40,168 nt of DNA. It comes from an uncultured Atopobiaceae bacterium. GTDB lineage: Bacteria > Actinomycetota > Coriobacteriia > Coriobacteriales > Atopobiaceae. How positions within the stretch are numbered: position 1 is the stretch's first letter; each line of letters begins with the position of its first letter. Below the pieces are notes generated by a model. That model was given only the letters and a program-made list of their open reading frames with translations, was not told where the DNA came from and searched no databases. The translations under genes and the position numbers were made by a program. The stretch covers positions 1-40,168 of the forward strand of contig CANQOF010000016.1 in the NCBI GenBank assembly GCA_947625405.1. Direction: 5' to 3'. Shown here in pieces: positions 5,217 through 18,541 of this stretch.

Positions 5217-5419
5217 GGGTGCTCCGTTCGATCTTCGATTGATGTCGAGCTCGCTTGCAACGGCAAGGCCGCATTCTAGCGCTTCGCACGCGCGCGGAGG
5301 AAGAACGCACAGGAAGGGCACGGAATTCCCCCCCCCAAAGGCATCCGTCGTGTGGCCACGCGGCGGGAAGGCGGCGATGCGAGGGATGCGGCGCGCGGGA
5401 CGTGCTAGAGTGCAGGTGC
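5217..5419. other. Divergent intergenic region
   Basis: The 203 bp before the riboswitch hold the promoters for two divergent operons. A C-tract lies near 5330-5336 and a TAGAGT hexamer at 5406-5411 could be the -10 element for the riboswitch transcript, but no convincing -35 is seen at 17 bp spacing. Nothing else is recognised. Confidence 0.4.
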
Positions 5420-5530
5420 TGTTTCAGGGATGGGTGCAATTCCCTACTGGCGGTAGAGCCCGCGAGCCGCGACGCGCGGTTGATCCGGTGGAACTCCGGA
5501 GCCAACGGTCAAAGTCCGGAGGGGAGAAAC
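5420..5530 (+). promoter_or_regulatory. FMN riboswitch (RFN element)
   Basis: The canonical RFN consensus blocks appear in order: AGGGATGGGTGCAATTCCC, TACTGGCGGTAGAGCCCGCG, a variable GC-rich helix, GATCCGGTGGAACTCCGG, then AGCCAACGGTCAAAGTCCGG and AGGGGAGAAA. The aptamer binds flavin mononucleotide. It ends directly against the ribU Shine-Dalgarno (GGAG, 5531-5534), and this arrangement favours control of translation initiation by sequestration. No T-run terminator is visible between the aptamer and the gene. It should repress the whole ribU-ecfAA'-ecfT operon when flavin is abundant. Confidence 0.96.
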
Positions 5531-5541
5531 GGAGTTTCGCC

Positions 5542-6132: not shown

Positions 6133-7983
6133 ATGCCGGCTGAGGGCGGGCGGGTCCCGCTCGAGCGCGAGGTGGCTCCGCGTTTCGCGGATGACGAGAT
6201 CGCGCGCCTCGAGGACGTGGGCTATAGCTTCGACGGAGGACGGAGCTGGGCGCTTTCGCGCGTGACGCTCGCGCTCTCGGGGCGTGAGCGCGTGTGCGTG
6301 ATGGGCGCGAACGGCTCCGGGAAGTCCACGCTCGCGCTCCTGATCGCGGGGCTTCGCGCGCCCGACGAGGGATCCGTGCGGCTCATGGGGCGCGCGTGCT
6401 TTTCCGACGGACTTCCCGAGAGCGAGGCGTACGCGAGCGCGCGGCGCCAGACGGGGCTCGTCTTCCAGGATCCGCGCGACCAGATCGTGGCGGGCGTGGT
6501 GGCGGATGACGTGACCTTCGGGCCCGAGAACCTCGCGCTTCCCGCGGGGGAGATCTGCCTTCGCGTGGCGCGCGAGCTCGATCGCGTGGGTGGGCTCGAC
6601 CTCGCGTGGCGGGACACCTCGGAGCTCTCTGGCGGCCAGGCGCAGCGCGTGGCGATTGCGAGCGCGATGGCGATGGAGCCCGCGCTCATGGTCTTCGACG
6701 AGGCGGCGGCGTTCTTGGATGTGCGTGCGCGCTCGGCGCTCCGGCGCCTCGCGATGCGGCTTTGCCGCGTGTGCGCGCAGGTGTGGGTGAGCCACGACGT
6801 CGAAGACGCGGCGGATGCCACGCGCCTCATCGTGCTCGCCGAGGGCAAGGTGGCCTTCGACGGAGCCCCCTCGGAGCTGCTCGTGGATGCCGAGCGGCTC
6901 TGCGCGCTCGGCCTCGAGCCGCCGTTCTGGATGCGCCTCGCCGACGCGCTTCGCGAGAGGGGCTGGGACCTCCCGCCCGTCTCAAGCGAATCCGACCTCG
7001 CACGCGCCATCGCCGCCCAAGACAGTGGGGACGGACCTTTTGTCTTGCGCGCAACGCCCCTACCAGCGAAAACGTCGCAAGACAGTGGGGACGGACCTTT
7101 CGTCTTGGAAAAACCGCAGGTGGTGGGCTCGCCGCAAGACAAAAGAACCGTCCCCACTGTCTTGGAGGGGTTCGAGGCACGGGGCCTTGGGTTTTCCTAT
7201 GCGGAGGGCGAGGTGCTCCATGGCGTGGACCTCACCGTCCGCTCGGGCGAGCTCGTGGCCGTCGTGGGGGCCACGGGCTCGGGCAAGACGACCCTCGCGC
7301 GCCTGCTCGCGGGGCTCGTGGCGCCCAAGCGGGGCTCGCTCTCCTTCAAGGGCATCGACCTCGGCACGGCGAAGGGGAGGCGCGGCGCGAGCGGGCGCAT
7401 CGGCTTCGTGATGCAGCAGCCCGAGCGCCAGCTCTTCGCCGAGAGCGTGGCGAGGGACGTGGCCTTCGGGCCGGAGAATCTCGGACTTTCCGCGACGGAG
7501 GTGGAGGGGAGGGTCTCGCGGGCGCTTTCTCGCCTCGGCATTGCCCACCTCGCCGATCGCTCGCCCTTCGAGCTCTCGGGTGGCCAACAGCGCCTCGTGG
7601 CGCTCGCGGGCGTGGCCGCGCTCGAGCCCGAGGCGTGGGTGCTCGACGAGCCGCTCGCGGGCCTCGACGCCGAGGCGAGGGCGGCCGTCTCCGCGCTCAT
7701 CGACGAGCAGCGCGCGGGGGGGTGCGTGATGGTGCTCGTCACCCACGACATGGACCAGGCTGCGGGAGCAGACCGCATCCTCGCGCTCGAGCGGGGGCAG
7801 GTGGCGCTCGAGGGCACGCCCAAGGAGGTCTTCTCGCACGCGCGGGAGCTCGAGGAAATGGGCCTCGGCCTCCCGAAGCCGCTTCGCTTCGCGCACGCGC
7901 TTCGCGAGCTTGGCGCGCGCATCGGCGAGCCCCTCACCTTCGAGGCGCTCCTCGCCGAGCTCTGCGAGGGGAGGCGCCCATGA
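6133..7983 (+). CDS. ecfA: Fused double ECF-type ABC ATPase with a repeat-encoded linker
   Basis: 616 residues that carry both ATPase subunits of an energy-coupling-factor importer on one chain. First half (about 20-290): Walker A GANGSGKST, Q-loop QDPRDQ, signature LSGGQ, Walker B VFDEA, H-loop SHD. Second half (about 346-616): Walker A GATGSGKTT, QQPERQ, LSGGQ, VLDEP, THD. All catalytic residues are kept; the first Walker B has DEA instead of DEP. Residues 296-344 are translated from a 147-bp repeat element (7018-7164) and contain QDSGDGPFVL twice plus the inverted unit QDKRTVPTVL. ATG at 6133 has only a weak ribosome site, so coupling to ribU is likely. The stop overlaps the ecfT start as ATGA. 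Confidence 0.93.
   Translation: MPAEGGRVPLEREVAPRFADDEIARLEDVGYSFDGGRSWALSRVTLALSGRERVCVMGANGSGKSTLALLIAGLRAPDEGSVRLMGRACFSDGLPESEAYASARRQTGLVFQDPRDQIVAGVVADDVTFGPENLALPAGEICLRVARELDRVGGLDLAWRDTSELSGGQAQRVAIASAMAMEPALMVFDEAAAFLDVRARSALRRLAMRLCRVCAQVWVSHDVEDAADATRLIVLAEGKVAFDGAPSELLVDAERLCALGLEPPFWMRLADALRERGWDLPPVSSESDLARAIAAQDSGDGPFVLRATPLPAKTSQDSGDGPFVLEKPQVVGSPQDKRTVPTVLEGFEARGLGFSYAEGEVLHGVDLTVRSGELVAVVGATGSGKTTLARLLAGLVAPKRGSLSFKGIDLGTAKGRRGASGRIGFVMQQPERQLFAESVARDVAFGPENLGLSATEVEGRVSRALSRLGIAHLADRSPFELSGGQQRLVALAGVAALEPEAWVLDEPLAGLDAEARAAVSALIDEQRAGGCVMVLVTHDMDQAAGADRILALERGQVALEGTPKEVFSHARELEEMGLGLPKPLRFAHALRELGARIGEPLTFEALLAELCEGRRP
7018..7164 (+). repeat. 147-bp composite REP-like element, copy A (inside ecfA)
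   Basis: Three 30-bp units lie at 7018-7047, 7078-7107 and 7135-7164 (the last inverted). Each unit is bounded by CAAGAC and GTCTTG arms around a GTGGGGACGG core. The spacing is 60 then 57 bp. Exactly the same length, order, orientation and spacer sequence classes occur in the reverse-oriented element at 35550-35696. The length is 49 codons, and the reading frame through it has no stop, so the host gene stays open. It lies at the junction of the two ATPase halves. Confidence 0.95.
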
Positions 7984-8777
7984 GCGCTCGCACGCTTCCC
8001 GCGCCTCCCTCGCGCGCGCCGCTCGCCGCGCTCGATCCAAGGACGAAGATCCTCGGCGCCGTGGCGCTCATGGTCTTGAGCTTCTTCGTGGCAAGCCCCG
8101 CCCAGGCGATCCTTGCCGTGGGCCTTGTGTTCGCGCTCCTCGCGCTCGGGCGGCTACATGTGGGGCGCTTTGCGTTCTCCGTGCTCCCGATCGTCGTGCC
8201 GCTCGCGCTCGTGGCCGCCCTCAACCTCGTCTTCACGCGCACGGGCCCCGTCATCTGGAGCTGGGGCGTGCTTTCCGTGACGCAGGGGGGCCTCGCTACG
8301 GCGCTCACCTACGGCTTTCGCGTGACCCTCATCGTCTGCTTCGGCGCGATCCTCCTCTCCACGATGCCCGCGGGCGAGCTTGCGAGCGCGCTCTCGAGCC
8401 TCCTCTCGCCGCTTCGCCTCCTCGGCGCGCCGGTGGAGGAGTGGGCGTTCGTGCTCTCGCTCGCGCTTCGCTTCGTTCCCACCCTCGGGCAGGAGTTCCA
8501 GGCCGTGCGCGAGGCGCAGGCGTCACGCGGGGGCACGGTCGCGCGTGGTACGCCCGTCCAGAGGGTTCGCTCGCTTGCGGCGCTCGTCGTGCCCATCCTT
8601 GCCGCGGCGCTTCGCCACGCGGAGCGCCTCTCGCTCGCGCTTGATTCGCGTGCGTGGGAAAGCGGCGCGCCGCGCACCCGTTGGCGGCCCCTTCGCCTCA
8701 CGTTGGCCGACGCCTTCGCCTTCGCCGCGCTCGCGCTCTACGCGGTGCTGCTCGTGGCACTCGGCTCGCTACCATAG
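7980..8777 (+). CDS. ecfT: ECF transporter transmembrane coupling protein EcfT
   Basis: 265 residues with five or so membrane helices and the two Ala-Arg-Gly-type coupling helices of EcfT: EAQASRGGTV (about 178-187) and LALDSRAWES (about 219-228), whose Arg residues contact the ATPases. The N-terminal LDPRTKIL is also family-typical. The ATG at 7980 overlaps the ecfA stop (ATGA), which indicates translational coupling. It completes the ribU-ecfAA'-ecfT set, so this riboflavin importer has its own dedicated (group I-like) energizing module. EcfT could also serve other S components elsewhere in the genome. Confidence 0.93.
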   Translation: MSARTLPAPPSRAPLAALDPRTKILGAVALMVLSFFVASPAQAILAVGLVFALLALGRLHVGRFAFSVLPIVVPLALVAALNLVFTRTGPVIWSWGVLSVTQGGLATALTYGFRVTLIVCFGAILLSTMPAGELASALSSLLSPLRLLGAPVEEWAFVLSLALRFVPTLGQEFQAVREAQASRGGTVARGTPVQRVRSLAALVVPILAAALRHAERLSLALDSRAWESGAPRTRWRPLRLTLADAFAFAALALYAVLLVALGSLP

Positions 8778-13469: not shown

Positions 13470-13566
13470 GCGTCGAACGGCATGATGGTGCGCCGTCCGA
13501 TCGTCGTGGGCGACGGTTTCGCGCTTTTCGGCTTCAACGAAAACGCCTGGGCGAGCGCCCTGCTCT
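13470..13566 (+). pseudogene. 3' fragment of an arsC/spx-like gene
   Basis: Reading the plus strand gives the peptide ASNGMMVRRPIVVGDGFALF and then GFNENAWASALL. This aligns with the C-terminus of the intact arsC-like protein encoded on the minus strand at 17348-17713 (…GFNEKDWESALL). DNA identity looks about 90% over the fragment. The intact gene's stop codon is changed and all N-terminal sequence, including the CxxC, is absent. The fragment is inverted relative to the intact gene and abuts the CTTGCGGTGT array. Confidence 0.88.
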
Positions 13567-15287: not shown

Positions 15288-16286
15288 TCACTTGGCGGCC
15301 ACGCGGGCGGCCTCTGCCTTCGCGCGGCGCCAGGCGATGAGGTCGAGGGATTGCACGACCGCCTCGAGGAGGTCGGGCGAGTTCTTGTAGACCGTGCCGT
15401 CGGGCATCGTGAGCTCGATGTCCTTTTCGTTGAGGTCGTAGGAGTCGTCGTGGTTCATCGCCACTCCCCGCTCGCCGCGCACGACGCACCAGTTCGTGGC
15501 CTCGGTGGAGGCGAGCGGCACGATGCCGTCGTTGTCGCCGTCGAAGAGGTGGATGAAGAGGCTTCGAGGGTTCATCCGCTGGGCCTTCGTCATGCGCGGC
15601 ACGAATGCGTAGCTGCGGTATTCGATGCCCGGGAGGTCCTCGTTCTCCTCGATGAGGGTCTCCGCCGCGTATGTGGTCGTCGAGTGGAGGAGCCCGAGGG
15701 CGTCGGGGTCGTCATCGCCCATCTTCCGGGCGTTGTTGTCGATGATGGGCGCCACGATCTTCGAGAGGATGGGCCCGAGGTACATGAGGGCGTTCGACAT
15801 GCGAAGGCCATGGTAGGGGGTGCCGAGCGTGACGATCGAGGCCGTGTGGTCGCCGAGGTCGCGCGTGTGCACGCAGTGGCGGATGTCGAGGCCGCCCTTG
15901 GAGTGCGCGATCATGTGGATCTTCTCCGCGCCCGTGCGCTCGAGCACCTCGTGGACGCTGTGGTAGAGCTGGAGCGAGTTGCGCTCGATGTCGCCCCACG
16001 CGTCCTGGCAGCCGAAGAAGACCTGCGAGCCACCCTGGCGCAGGCGCTCGGGGATGCGACCCCAGAGCGGCGAGCTGTCCACGGAATAGTCGCGCGCGTG
16101 CATGCCGTGCACGAGGAGCACCGGAAGGTGCGGCATCTCGGGGTCGATGCGCATGAGGTGCGTGAAGCCCTGGCTGTCGACGATGCGCACACACCCATCC
16201 GTGCCCTCTGAGCAGGAGGTTTCCTCCATGCCCAAAGGCGCGCCGTCGCGCTCCTCCATCGATTCTTTGTCATGCGTCTCGTCCAT
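15288..16286 (-). CDS. Lipase-like alpha/beta hydrolase
   Basis: 332 residues. The oxyanion-hole motif VLLVHGM (about 56-62) and the nucleophile elbow AHSKGGLD (G-x-S-x-G variant, AHSxGG as in bacterial true lipases) are clear. The acid is probably an Asp in FDGDNDGIVP, and the His probably that in MNHDDSYDL. There is no signal peptide, so it is probably an intracellular esterase, lipase or acyltransferase. The sequence between 'GTPYHGL' and the catalytic Asp carries a lid-like insert. It is the first gene of a two-gene operon with the CorA protein, a pairing I cannot explain functionally. Confidence 0.85.
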   Translation of the reverse strand: MDETHDKESMEERDGAPLGMEETSCSEGTDGCVRIVDSQGFTHLMRIDPEMPHLPVLLVHGMHARDYSVDSSPLWGRIPERLRQGGSQVFFGCQDAWGDIERNSLQLYHSVHEVLERTGAEKIHMIAHSKGGLDIRHCVHTRDLGDHTASIVTLGTPYHGLRMSNALMYLGPILSKIVAPIIDNNARKMGDDDPDALGLLHSTTTYAAETLIEENEDLPGIEYRSYAFVPRMTKAQRMNPRSLFIHLFDGDNDGIVPLASTEATNWCVVRGERGVAMNHDDSYDLNEKDIELTMPDGTVYKNSPDLLEAVVQSLDLIAWRRAKAEAARVAAK

Positions 16287-16385
16287 GCCCTCTCTATACC
16301 CGCAAATGCGAGGGCAAGGCCTCGTCGAGAGGGTGGATCGGGTACAAGGATGCTAAGGGCACGCGGCGGGAGAAGCGAGAGACGA

Positions 16386-17270
16386 GTGGCCACCAACACC
16401 GCCACAGACAAGTACGGCTACGTCGCGCACATGAACTGGCGCGCGTTCGTCGTGCCCTCGGGGATCGCCTGCCTCATCGCGAGCTTCTCCGCGGCGAGCT
16501 TCCTCATGCTCCTGCCGTCGATGGAAACCTCCGACGCGCAGGTGCTCGCCTCGGGGCTCGACAAGCTCGTGAGGGAGGAGAGCGATTCGGTTCTCGACTT
16601 GAACTTCGGCGACTCGCACATCCTCGCCTCGCTCGCCTTCGTGGCGTTCGTGGCGATCGGCCTCGTGATCCTCTCCTACGCGCGAAACGACCGCATCGCC
16701 TATATGGAGGCCTTTCCGCACATCAACCTCGCCTTCACGAGGGAAGAGGTCGCGCAATCCATCTCGGTGCGCAAGCGCTGCACGGCGATCGCGATCGTGA
16801 TCTACCTCCTCGCCGCGGGCGCGTTCACGCTCTTCAAACTCTTCGGCCTCTCGCACCTCGCCACGGGCTGCGCGTTTGCCCTCGGCGCGCTCGCCACGTG
16901 GGTGATCGTCCACGGCGGCATGCGGGCGAAGCGCGAGGACCTGTTCGCCTACAACTTCGAGGCCCTCAGGCACACGAGCTTCTACGAGCTCAACGCCGAG
17001 GCGAAGGCGAAGAATCGCGAGTGGATGCTCATGGCGAAGCGCCGCTCGATGCTCGCCCAGAGCGCGAACCGCGTGATCCTCACGGCGGGCGCCCTCGGCT
17101 CGCTCGCCCTCTATTCGCTGCCCTCGCTCGCGACGCCCTACTACTGGGTGTCCATCGCCGCGGCGTGCGGGATCGCGATGCTCAACACCCACGCCGCCAT
17201 GGAGAAGACGCGCCGCCTTTCCGTGATCGACGGCGACCTCTATCGCGTGGCGGATGCACCCGCGAAATAG
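16386..17270 (+). CDS. Multi-pass membrane protein of unknown function
   Basis: About 294 residues with six probable membrane helices: one pair near the N-terminus (about 22-42 and 79-97), a central pair (about 130-150 and 157-177) and a C-terminal pair (about 228-243 and 250-268). A charged cytoplasmic loop (about 178-225, rich in Lys/Arg and Glu) connects the last two pairs. No family motif is recognised. The GTG at 16386 preceded by GAGAG is preferred; an in-frame ATG at 16350 would add 12 basic residues. It is a single gene, divergent from the lipase-CorA pair. Confidence 0.7.
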   Translation: MATNTATDKYGYVAHMNWRAFVVPSGIACLIASFSAASFLMLLPSMETSDAQVLASGLDKLVREESDSVLDLNFGDSHILASLAFVAFVAIGLVILSYARNDRIAYMEAFPHINLAFTREEVAQSISVRKRCTAIAIVIYLLAAGAFTLFKLFGLSHLATGCAFALGALATWVIVHGGMRAKREDLFAYNFEALRHTSFYELNAEAKAKNREWMLMAKRRSMLAQSANRVILTAGALGSLALYSLPSLATPYYWVSIAAACGIAMLNTHAAMEKTRRLSVIDGDLYRVADAPAK

Positions 17271-17347: not shown

Positions 17348-17713
17348 TTAGAGCAGGGCGCTTTCCCAGTCCTTCTCGTTGAAGCCGAAGAGCGCGAAGC
17401 CGTCGCCCACCACGATCGGACGGCGCACCATCATGCCGTTCGACGCGAGGAGCGCGAAGGCATCGTCATCGCCCATGCCCGCGTCGAGCCGCTCCTTCAC
17501 GTTCTGCTTGCGGTAGAGCTGGCCCGAGGTGTTGAACATCTTGCGGATGGTGGCGCCGCTCTCCGCCTGCCACGCGCGGAGCTCGTCTTCGGTGGGGTTG
17601 TCCTCCTTGATGTTGCGCTCGGTGTAGGCCACATGGTGCCCATCCAGCCACTTGCGCGCCTTTGCGCAGGTGGAGCAGCCCTTAAAGCAAAGAAAGGTGA
17701 CCGTTTCGGGCAT
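17348..17713 (-). CDS. ArsC/Spx-family thioredoxin-fold protein
   Basis: 121 residues, the normal size for the ArsC/Spx/YffB family. The N-terminal FLCFKGCSTCAKARKWL carries the CxxC redox pair; the central 'TRKMFNTSG'-like segment TIRKMFNTSGQLYRK and the C-terminal MVRRPIVVGDG are family hallmarks (the Arg-Pro turn). Family members reduce arsenate by glutaredoxin or thioredoxin chemistry, or regulate RNA polymerase (Spx); the sequence does not decide between these. ATG at 17713 with GGGA upstream gives a start just before the first strand. A related 3' fragment lies at 13470-13566. Confidence 0.88.
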   Translation of the reverse strand: MPETVTFLCFKGCSTCAKARKWLDGHHVAYTERNIKEDNPTEDELRAWQAESGATIRKMFNTSGQLYRKQNVKERLDAGMGDDDAFALLASNGMMVRRPIVVGDGFALFGFNEKDWESALL

Positions 17714-17812
17714 GGGATTTCCCATCTCTTTCAGCGAATGGGCCTTCCAGTATGCACTCGCCGTCGAGCGAAAAGCTCCCCCTCCCTTTCTTCTCGCAAT
17801 CCCCTCATTTCT

Positions 17813-17925
17813 CAAGACAGTGGGGACGGACCTTTTGCCTTGCGCACAGCGCCCCTAGCAGCGAAAACGTAGAAGGACAGTGGGGACGGACCTTTTGTCT
17901 TGCGGATCCGTCCCCGCGGTCGTGC
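17813..17925. repeat. Decayed copy of the 147-bp REP-like element
   Basis: Units at 17813-17842 and 17873-17902 match the first two units of the intact element with the same 60-bp offset, and the spacer between them (GCGCCCCTAGCAGCGAAAAC) is conserved. The second inter-unit spacer is missing and the inverted third unit survives only as a truncated form (GATCCGTCCCCGCGGTCGTG, about 17906-17925). The frame that is open in the ecfA copy is interrupted here by TAG in AAAACGTAG. It lies between the arsC-like gene and the peptide precursor gene. Confidence 0.9.
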
Positions 17926-17933
17926 GTGCGTCC

Positions 17934-18326
17934 CTAGTCCTGGACGACCCCGCCGAACATGCATTGGACCACGCCCTTGCCCTCGGGGTTCTCCTGATGC
18001 CCGGCTTGACCGTAGATAAAGCAGCCGCAGCCCTTCACGGCGCCGATGATGACGCACATGCAACTGCCGCCGCCCGACACGGCCTCGAGCTCCACCTCGG
18101 AGAGCTCGCCCTCGGAGGCGCTGGCGTCACTCGCGAGGATGTCCTCCGTGCTGAGGTCGAGATCGTGCGCGACGGCGAAGGCGGCGACGGCCATGGCGAC
18201 GGCCTCGCGCGCCTCGGCCTCGGAGACGCCCGTCACATCCACCGAGTCCGTGACCTGTGCGAACTCCTCTTGAAGTGCGTCATCCGCGGAGACGGCTTCG
18301 TAGAACTTGGTGACTTTCGCATTCAT
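17934..18326 (-). CDS. Nif11-leader RiPP precursor peptide, Cys-rich core
   Basis: 130 residues. The first 84 or so form a Nif11-type leader: FYEAVSADDALQEEF (the family's 'xFlexvxxdpxLqexl' helix), then AVAHDLDLSTEDI and the leader end GELSEVELEAVSGG. Leader cleavage is expected after the Gly pair (85-86). The core (about 87-130) is Gly-rich and has five Cys (89, 91, 100, 102, 122) as two CxC pairs plus one, and only one Ser after the GG. This argues against a classical lanthipeptide. ATG at 18326 has AAGGG about nine bases upstream. No modifying enzyme, C39 peptidase or exporter lies next to it. The gene reads toward the arsC-like gene. Confidence 0.88.
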   Translation of the reverse strand: MNAKVTKFYEAVSADDALQEEFAQVTDSVDVTGVSEAEAREAVAMAVAAFAVAHDLDLSTEDILASDASASEGELSEVELEAVSGGGSCMCVIIGAVKGCGCFIYGQAGHQENPEGKGVVQCMFGGVVQD

Positions 18327-18541
18327 CGATTCATCCCTTCACGCGTGTGCCATCCGTTCGAGGGCACCTCCGTCCATTATTCCCGCCCGATCGCCCCCAC
18401 CACCCTCACAGCGGCGAGCACCCCCGAACCAGCCGCGAGATCGCGCTTTCGTGCTTTCCCACGCGTCTTTGGCGCTTGGTCACCAGCTTGAGGCAGTGGT
18501 TCTCGCGGGAAGTGCGAATCCGCCTCGTCCGTTTCGCGTCG

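What the first reader, a model, noticed from the sequence alone, without database searches (positions are those of the whole stretch)
17934..18326. Orphan Nif11-leader peptide precursor with a CxC-CxC-C core
The leader fits the Nif11 class and ends in a double-Gly site. The core has five Cys, many Gly and almost no Ser/Thr, so lanthionine formation from Ser/Thr cannot explain it. Thioether links to alpha carbons (radical SAM), disulfides or metal binding are possible. No modification enzyme, peptidase or exporter is adjacent, so it would have to be matured in trans. Its only near neighbour in the same direction is a CxxC thioredoxin-fold protein, whose involvement is speculative.
Basis: partly seen in the sequence, partly recalled or inferred. 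Interest (0 to 1): 0.75.

Follow-up and report, generated by a model that had tools for sequence, protein, structure and literature searches.

The report
Dispersed Nif11 peptides, radical-SAM matured in trans
The gene encodes one of about a dozen scattered copies of a five-cysteine secreted-peptide precursor in a gut actinobacterium; most copies share one promoter motif and they probably rely on radical-SAM enzymes and a single exporter encoded elsewhere in the genome, which would make the set a radical-SAM counterpart of the cyanobacterial prochlorosins.

Summary
The ORF at 17934-18326 (-) is real: 130 aa, an acidic helical Nif11-type leader, VSGG, then a 44-aa core with CxC, CxC and C and one Ser/Thr. 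It is an orphan only locally. Its genome (1.72 Mb, genus with rabbit-gut Atopobiaceae relatives) has 13 family matches on seven contigs: 11 intact CxC precursors, one divergent-core member, one fragment. Four further species carry it. Of 40 distinct CxC members, 35 keep exactly five Cys, and ortholog pairs are under purifying selection. One copy (contig C9) lies in an operon with two SPASM radical SAM enzymes. The genome has one C39-peptidase NHLM exporter and no YcaO or LanC. A 9-N12-9 direct repeat (GCRCGAAWG), usually 126 nt before the start codon, precedes most copies (window copy at -149), the C9 operon and a second Nif11/radical-SAM operon. Best reading: a dispersed RiPP precursor family, thioether-crosslinked in trans by the C9 enzymes (inferred), then cleaved and exported by the NHLM transporter (inferred); it works like prochlorosins but with radical SAM instead of LanM. 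New variant of a known kind.

The parts
17934..18326 (-). CxC-family Nif11-type RiPP precursor gene (130 aa)
18069..18326 (-). leader, residues 1-86, ending in VSGG; predicted helices 3-13, 16-27, 36-53, 60-68, 77-84
   Evidence: AlphaFold2 model: mean pLDDT 70-92 per 10-residue block for residues 1-70, about 50 for 71-80 and under 45 beyond; TIGR03798 match over residues 8-86, below cut-off
17937..18068 (-). core, residues 87-130, Cys at 89, 91, 100, 102 and 122; predicted without stable fold
   Evidence: sequence; C89, C91, C102, C122 invariant and C100 nearly invariant in 16 homologues; pLDDT under 50
18446..18475 (-). promoter direct repeat GCGCCAAAG-N12-GCACGAAAG at -149, shared regulon element
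18376..18380 (-). ATAAT, candidate -10 box, 54 nt upstream of ATG (39-43 nt in most paralogues)
17810..17905 (-). two copies of a REP-like 27-30 bp repeat (CAAGAC-AAAAGGTCCGTCCCCACT-GTCTTG) downstream of the gene
   Evidence: matching repeats sit at the p4-helicase junction of the related genome G011 and upstream of the helicase in G013 and G014

Best explanation
The ORF is a RiPP precursor, one of at least 11 intact CxC-core precursors scattered over this genome. Its long helical leader carries a conserved FYExxSxDxxLQ motif. The proposed pathway is: (1) co-expression of most of the set from promoters bearing the 9-N12-9 direct repeat; (2) recognition of the leader in trans by the pair of SPASM radical SAM enzymes encoded on contig C9, which crosslink core Cys thiols to backbone or side-chain carbons (sactipeptide- or ranthipeptide-like thioethers); (3) removal of the leader after VSGG by the C39 domain of the single NHLM transporter on contig C1, and export of a hydrophobic, crosslinked peptide of about 44 residues that acts on other bacteria or as a signal. 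Shown by sequence: the family, Cys conservation, purifying selection on orthologues, the shared promoter element, the cis operon of one copy with two radical SAM genes, a single C39/NHLM exporter, and no YcaO or LanC. Inferred: that the C9 enzymes act on the other copies, the chemistry, export, and biological activity.
For: 13 family matches in the own genome and close homologues in four congeners. Conserved leader and core scaffold; 35 of 40 distinct CxC members have exactly five Cys. Purifying selection on orthologous pairs, pN well below pS in the leaders. The C9 copy lies in tight tandem with two SPASM radical SAM genes (gaps of 15 and 9 bp), repeated in another species. The closest solved relative of the first enzyme is SkfB, a sactisynthase (PMC6231123). 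Exporter TIGR03796 at 908 bits (cut-off 853) and TIGR03797 at 728 (cut-off 709), with a single C39 hit in the genome. No YcaO, no LanC. Direct repeat upstream of 30 of 43 family rows (26 at -120 to -130) against 0.07 expected in shuffles, also before the C9 operon and the C4 Nif11/radical-SAM operon; repeat columns about 1.5 bits, flanks and spacer about 0.4. Related radical SAM enzymes sit beside Cys-rich Nif11 peptides and ABC exporters in other coriobacterial genomes.
Against: No radical SAM family was found in every genome that carries CxC peptides: G013 (91% complete, many copies) lacks the C9 pair and G011 (88%) lacks the other two enzymes, although both are fragmented assemblies. The other two Nif11-associated radical SAM enzymes have their own cognate peptides. 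An RRE domain could not be confirmed. The promoter element in front of the exporter is weak in G000 and was not found in the retrieved G013 and G015 exporter stretches. The window copy was not found near the helicase in other species, so selection on it could not be measured.
Confidence: 0.55

Rival explanations
1. The CxC peptides other than the C9 copy are unmodified double-glycine peptides: leader cut and exported by the NHLM transporter, with the Cys forming disulfides outside the cell (class II bacteriocin-like). Only the C9 copy is radical SAM-modified.
For: Ten of eleven intact copies have no maturase in the same operon. Weak matches of a few members to class II bacteriocin leader models. 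A short hydrophobic Gly-rich core.
Against: The same CxC...GCxC...C scaffold is kept in the cis copy and in the distant copies, and the promoter element is shared.
Confidence: 0.25
2. The window peptide is matured in trans by another radical SAM enzyme of the genome (C4 or C7 locus), possibly with non-thioether chemistry.
For: The C4 operon shares the promoter element at -129 and its peptide's leader shares the FxEAxSxDxxL motif; a CxC copy lies near the C7 enzyme in G000 and in G013.
Against: Both enzymes have their own non-CxC Nif11 peptides next to them, and the C7 peptide has a different leader.
Confidence: 0.12
3. The window copy is a non-functional, recently inserted paralogue on its way to decay.
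For: Not found near the helicase in five related species. One paralogue on C7 is already a fragment lacking most of its leader. REP-like repeats beside the gene.
Against: Intact ORF, all five Cys, RBS, -10 box and direct repeat are kept.
Confidence: 0.08

Closest known systems
Prochlorosins / Nif11-derived lanthipeptides of Synechococcus and Prochlorococcus (PMC10783134, PMC2887384)
   Same: Nif11-type leader with a double-Gly site; many precursor genes scattered over one genome; few processing enzymes acting in trans.
   Different: Prochlorosins use a LanM-type synthetase and Ser/Thr; here there is no LanC and almost no Ser/Thr, and SPASM radical SAM enzymes replace it. Cores keep one Cys scaffold instead of being hypervariable.
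Sactipeptides (SkfB, PMC6231123; thuricin CD with two radical SAM enzymes, PMC12093266)
   Same: SPASM radical SAM maturases, a two-enzyme arrangement, Cys-rich hydrophobic core.
   Different: Long Nif11-type leader; dispersed multi-precursor set; acceptor residues unknown; no chemistry shown.
Nif11 peptide clusters of Eggerthella lenta and other Coriobacteriia (N11P beside TIGR03794/03796/03797; PMC2887384)
   Same: Same class of bacteria; Cys-rich Nif11 peptides with a related radical SAM enzyme and NHLM-like ABC genes (loci L142 and L146). L146 comes from a 3,632,260-bp single-contig genome, which by my recollection is the size of E. lenta DSM 2243.
   Different: There the peptides are clustered with the enzyme and ABC genes and have other Cys patterns; here the precursors are scattered and share a fixed CxC...GCxC...C scaffold.

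Membership tests
Nif11-type leader RiPP precursor (PF07862 / TIGR03798) | Profile match over the curated cut-off | tested here: not met
   This member: 17.6 against 23.8 and 21.4 against 32.3 bits. As a family: 16 of 16 members match TIGR03798 below E 0.01 (best 4e-9), and paralogues exceed the Pfam cut-off. It is called Nif11-type by homology to those paralogues, not by its own score.
Nif11-type leader RiPP precursor (PF07862 / TIGR03798) | Leader ends in a Gly-Gly cleavage motif followed by a short core | tested here: met
   VSGG at residues 83-86, G85 and G86 invariant in 16 homologues
NHLP/N11P export system | TIGR03796 (C39-ABC) and TIGR03797 ABC pair in the genome | tested here: met
   908 and 728 bits, both over cut-off, contig C1; TIGR03794 (HlyD-like) only partial, 43.6 bits against 156
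Lanthipeptide | LanM/LanC synthetase in the genome | tested here: not met
   no PF05147 hit; one Ser and no Thr in the core
Azole-containing RiPP (TOMM) | YcaO cyclodehydratase | tested here: not met
   no PF02624 hit
Sactipeptide / ranthipeptide | SPASM radical SAM maturase encoded with a member of the precursor family | tested here: met
   C9 operon: both enzymes carry Radical_SAM and SPASM domains, CxxxCxxC present
Sactipeptide / ranthipeptide | Cys-to-carbon thioether in the product | not testable with these tools
   needs mass spectrometry
Sactipeptide / ranthipeptide | RRE domain for leader recognition in the maturase | tested here: inconclusive
   conserved N-terminal domain of about 90 aa, but no significant profile match
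LytTR-controlled promoter | 9-bp direct repeats 12 bp apart | tested here: met
   geometry as tabulated in PMC6193735. The sequence differs from the repeats listed there, and the repeat lies further from the -10 box; no LytTR gene was searched for, so membership is not claimed

The most novel reading that the evidence does not exclude
A prochlorosin-like 'few enzymes, many scattered precursors' system in gut Actinobacteria that uses radical-SAM thioether chemistry, with most precursors under one promoter element and cores that are more conserved, even at synonymous sites, than their leaders.
Probability: 0.45. Interest if true: 0.8.

Novelty: new variant of a known kind. Interest (0 to 1): 0.62.

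Why it matters
If true, it extends the one-maturase, many-dispersed-substrates strategy from LanM lanthipeptides to radical SAM chemistry and to uncultured gut Actinobacteria. It would give a natural set of precursors for testing leader-guided promiscuity of SPASM enzymes, and a promoter signature for finding further members where gene-cluster-based mining may overlook them because no enzyme is adjacent.

Tried and rejected
The viral collection gave no relative of the family profile, and the plasmid collection none of the window peptide. An RRE in the radical SAM N-terminus could not be confirmed. Structural comparison of the precursor model gave no match above Z 2.9 among 18 chains, so it is uninformative. 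Co-occurrence of one radical SAM family with the CxC peptides does not single out one maturase, because G011 and G013 each lack a different enzyme. The exporter promoter as a member of the regulon was considered and not claimed, because the match is weak and was not found in the retrieved G013 and G015 stretches. Lanthionine and azoline chemistry were rejected for lack of enzymes. The first version of a leader-motif script printed nothing because of a wrong pattern and was redone. The promoter motif was found by search: motif discovery with widths 10 and 14, then pair spacings 20-23, and only then the scan at fixed 21-bp spacing, so its consensus was derived from some of the same sequences on which it was counted.

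Full report
What is in the sequence. The ORF at 17934-18326 (-) is a 130-codon gene with ATG start, RBS and normal codon-position GC (0.69/0.42/0.87) for this genome. Its translation has an acidic leader of 86 residues ending in VSGG and a 44-residue core with the Cys pattern CxC-x8-CxC-x19-C and one Ser/Thr. AlphaFold2 on three related sequences predicts a helical leader with moderate confidence (block means 70-92 for residues 1-70) and an unstructured core (mean pLDDT 59.5). The profile scores of this member to Nif11 models are below the curated cut-offs, while the family as a whole is clearly Nif11-type.

It is not an orphan. A search of 140 genomes of the family gave 13 matches in the window's own genome, on contigs C1, C6 (2), C7 (2, one a fragment), C8, C9, C13 (5) and C16 (the window), and close homologues in four congeneric species. 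Eleven of the own-genome copies have the CxC core; one C13 copy has a different core (ECDCPTTGNGI...). Two public relatives are rabbit-gut Atopobiaceae MAGs. A class-wide profile search over 396 genomes found one further strong CxC peptide in another family (G400, E 5e-47) and otherwise only leader-level similarity. Among 40 distinct CxC members, 35 have exactly five Cys, four have four (the third replaced by Ser or Ala) and one has seven (counts after removing one gene listed twice). In the 16-member alignment, C89, C91, C102 and C122 are invariant and C100 nearly so. In six orthologous CxC sets pN is well below pS in the leaders.

Enzymes. The C9 copy is followed after 15 bp by a 474-aa and then after 9 bp by a 466-aa radical SAM protein, both with SPASM domains, and the same order occurs in G011. 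The best solved relative of the first is SkfB. Two more Nif11-associated radical SAM genes lie on C7 and C4, each with its own non-CxC Nif11 peptide. The genome has one C39 peptidase, in an NHLM-type exporter on C1 next to a second ABC subunit, both above the curated cut-offs. YcaO and LanC are absent. No such gene was seen beside the window copy; the neighbour is an Spx/ArsC-family protein.

Regulon. Upstream sequences of most paralogues share ATAAT at about -42 and a direct repeat GCRCGAAWG-N12-GCRCGAAWG. Of 43 family rows with enough upstream sequence (one gene counted twice), 30 carry it with at most three mismatches, 26 of them at -120 to -130; shuffled sequences gave 0.07 on average, at most 1. 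Because paralogous upstream regions are related by descent and the consensus was derived from some of them, shuffles overstate significance; the better evidence is that the repeat columns carry about 1.5 bits while spacer and flanks carry about 0.4. The window copy has the repeat at -149. The same element precedes the C9 operon and the C4 Nif11/radical-SAM operon in several species. The 9-12-9 geometry equals that tabulated for LytTR regulators (PMC6193735), but the sequence differs and no regulator was searched for.

Interpretation. The best reading is a RiPP precursor matured in trans: prochlorosin-like in genome organisation (PMC10783134), radical-SAM in chemistry. The chemistry and the enzyme-substrate pairing are inferred. 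The strongest counter-evidence is that no one radical SAM family was found in every genome carrying the peptides, which incomplete assemblies could explain.

Mobility. No family member or Spx-like gene lies within 1.5 kb of the helicase in the other species. In G011 the gene upstream (window 16272-17270) lies next to the helicase with REP-like repeats between them; repeats matching those at window 17810-17905 are also upstream of the helicase in G013 and G014. The same repeats flank C13 copies. Recombination at these repeats may disperse the precursors (inference).

Noticed in passing
window 17810-17905, 7041-7165, 35613; L003:5040-5165, 8381-8505: REP-like 27-30 bp repeat CAAGAC-AAAAGGTCCGTCCCCACT-GTCTTG in small arrays of up to three copies (plus single copies), beside CxC genes on C13 and C16 but absent from the other five own-genome CxC loci and the C4 stretch examined.
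   Followed up: partly
C13, C7, C8, C9 orthologous pairs: Synonymous divergence is lower in cores than in leaders: 18 observed against 49 expected with amino acids controlled over seven CxC ortholog pairs; by Nei-Gojobori counts it is not seen in the divergent C13 peptide type. Leader recombination or a nucleotide-level constraint could explain it.
   Followed up: partly
window 13476-13565 (+): Fragment nearly identical to the C-terminus of the Spx-like protein at 17348-17815 (-), read from the two translations.
   Followed up: no
window 5416-5535 (+): FMN riboswitch.
   Followed up: no
L057:8459-11622: Several more short double-Gly peptides (for example ...EEELDKASGG with Pro-rich cores) beside two CxC copies.
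   Followed up: no
L141 (G400:C18): A strong CxC homologue in another coriobacterial family; no copy of the direct repeat upstream.
   Followed up: partly
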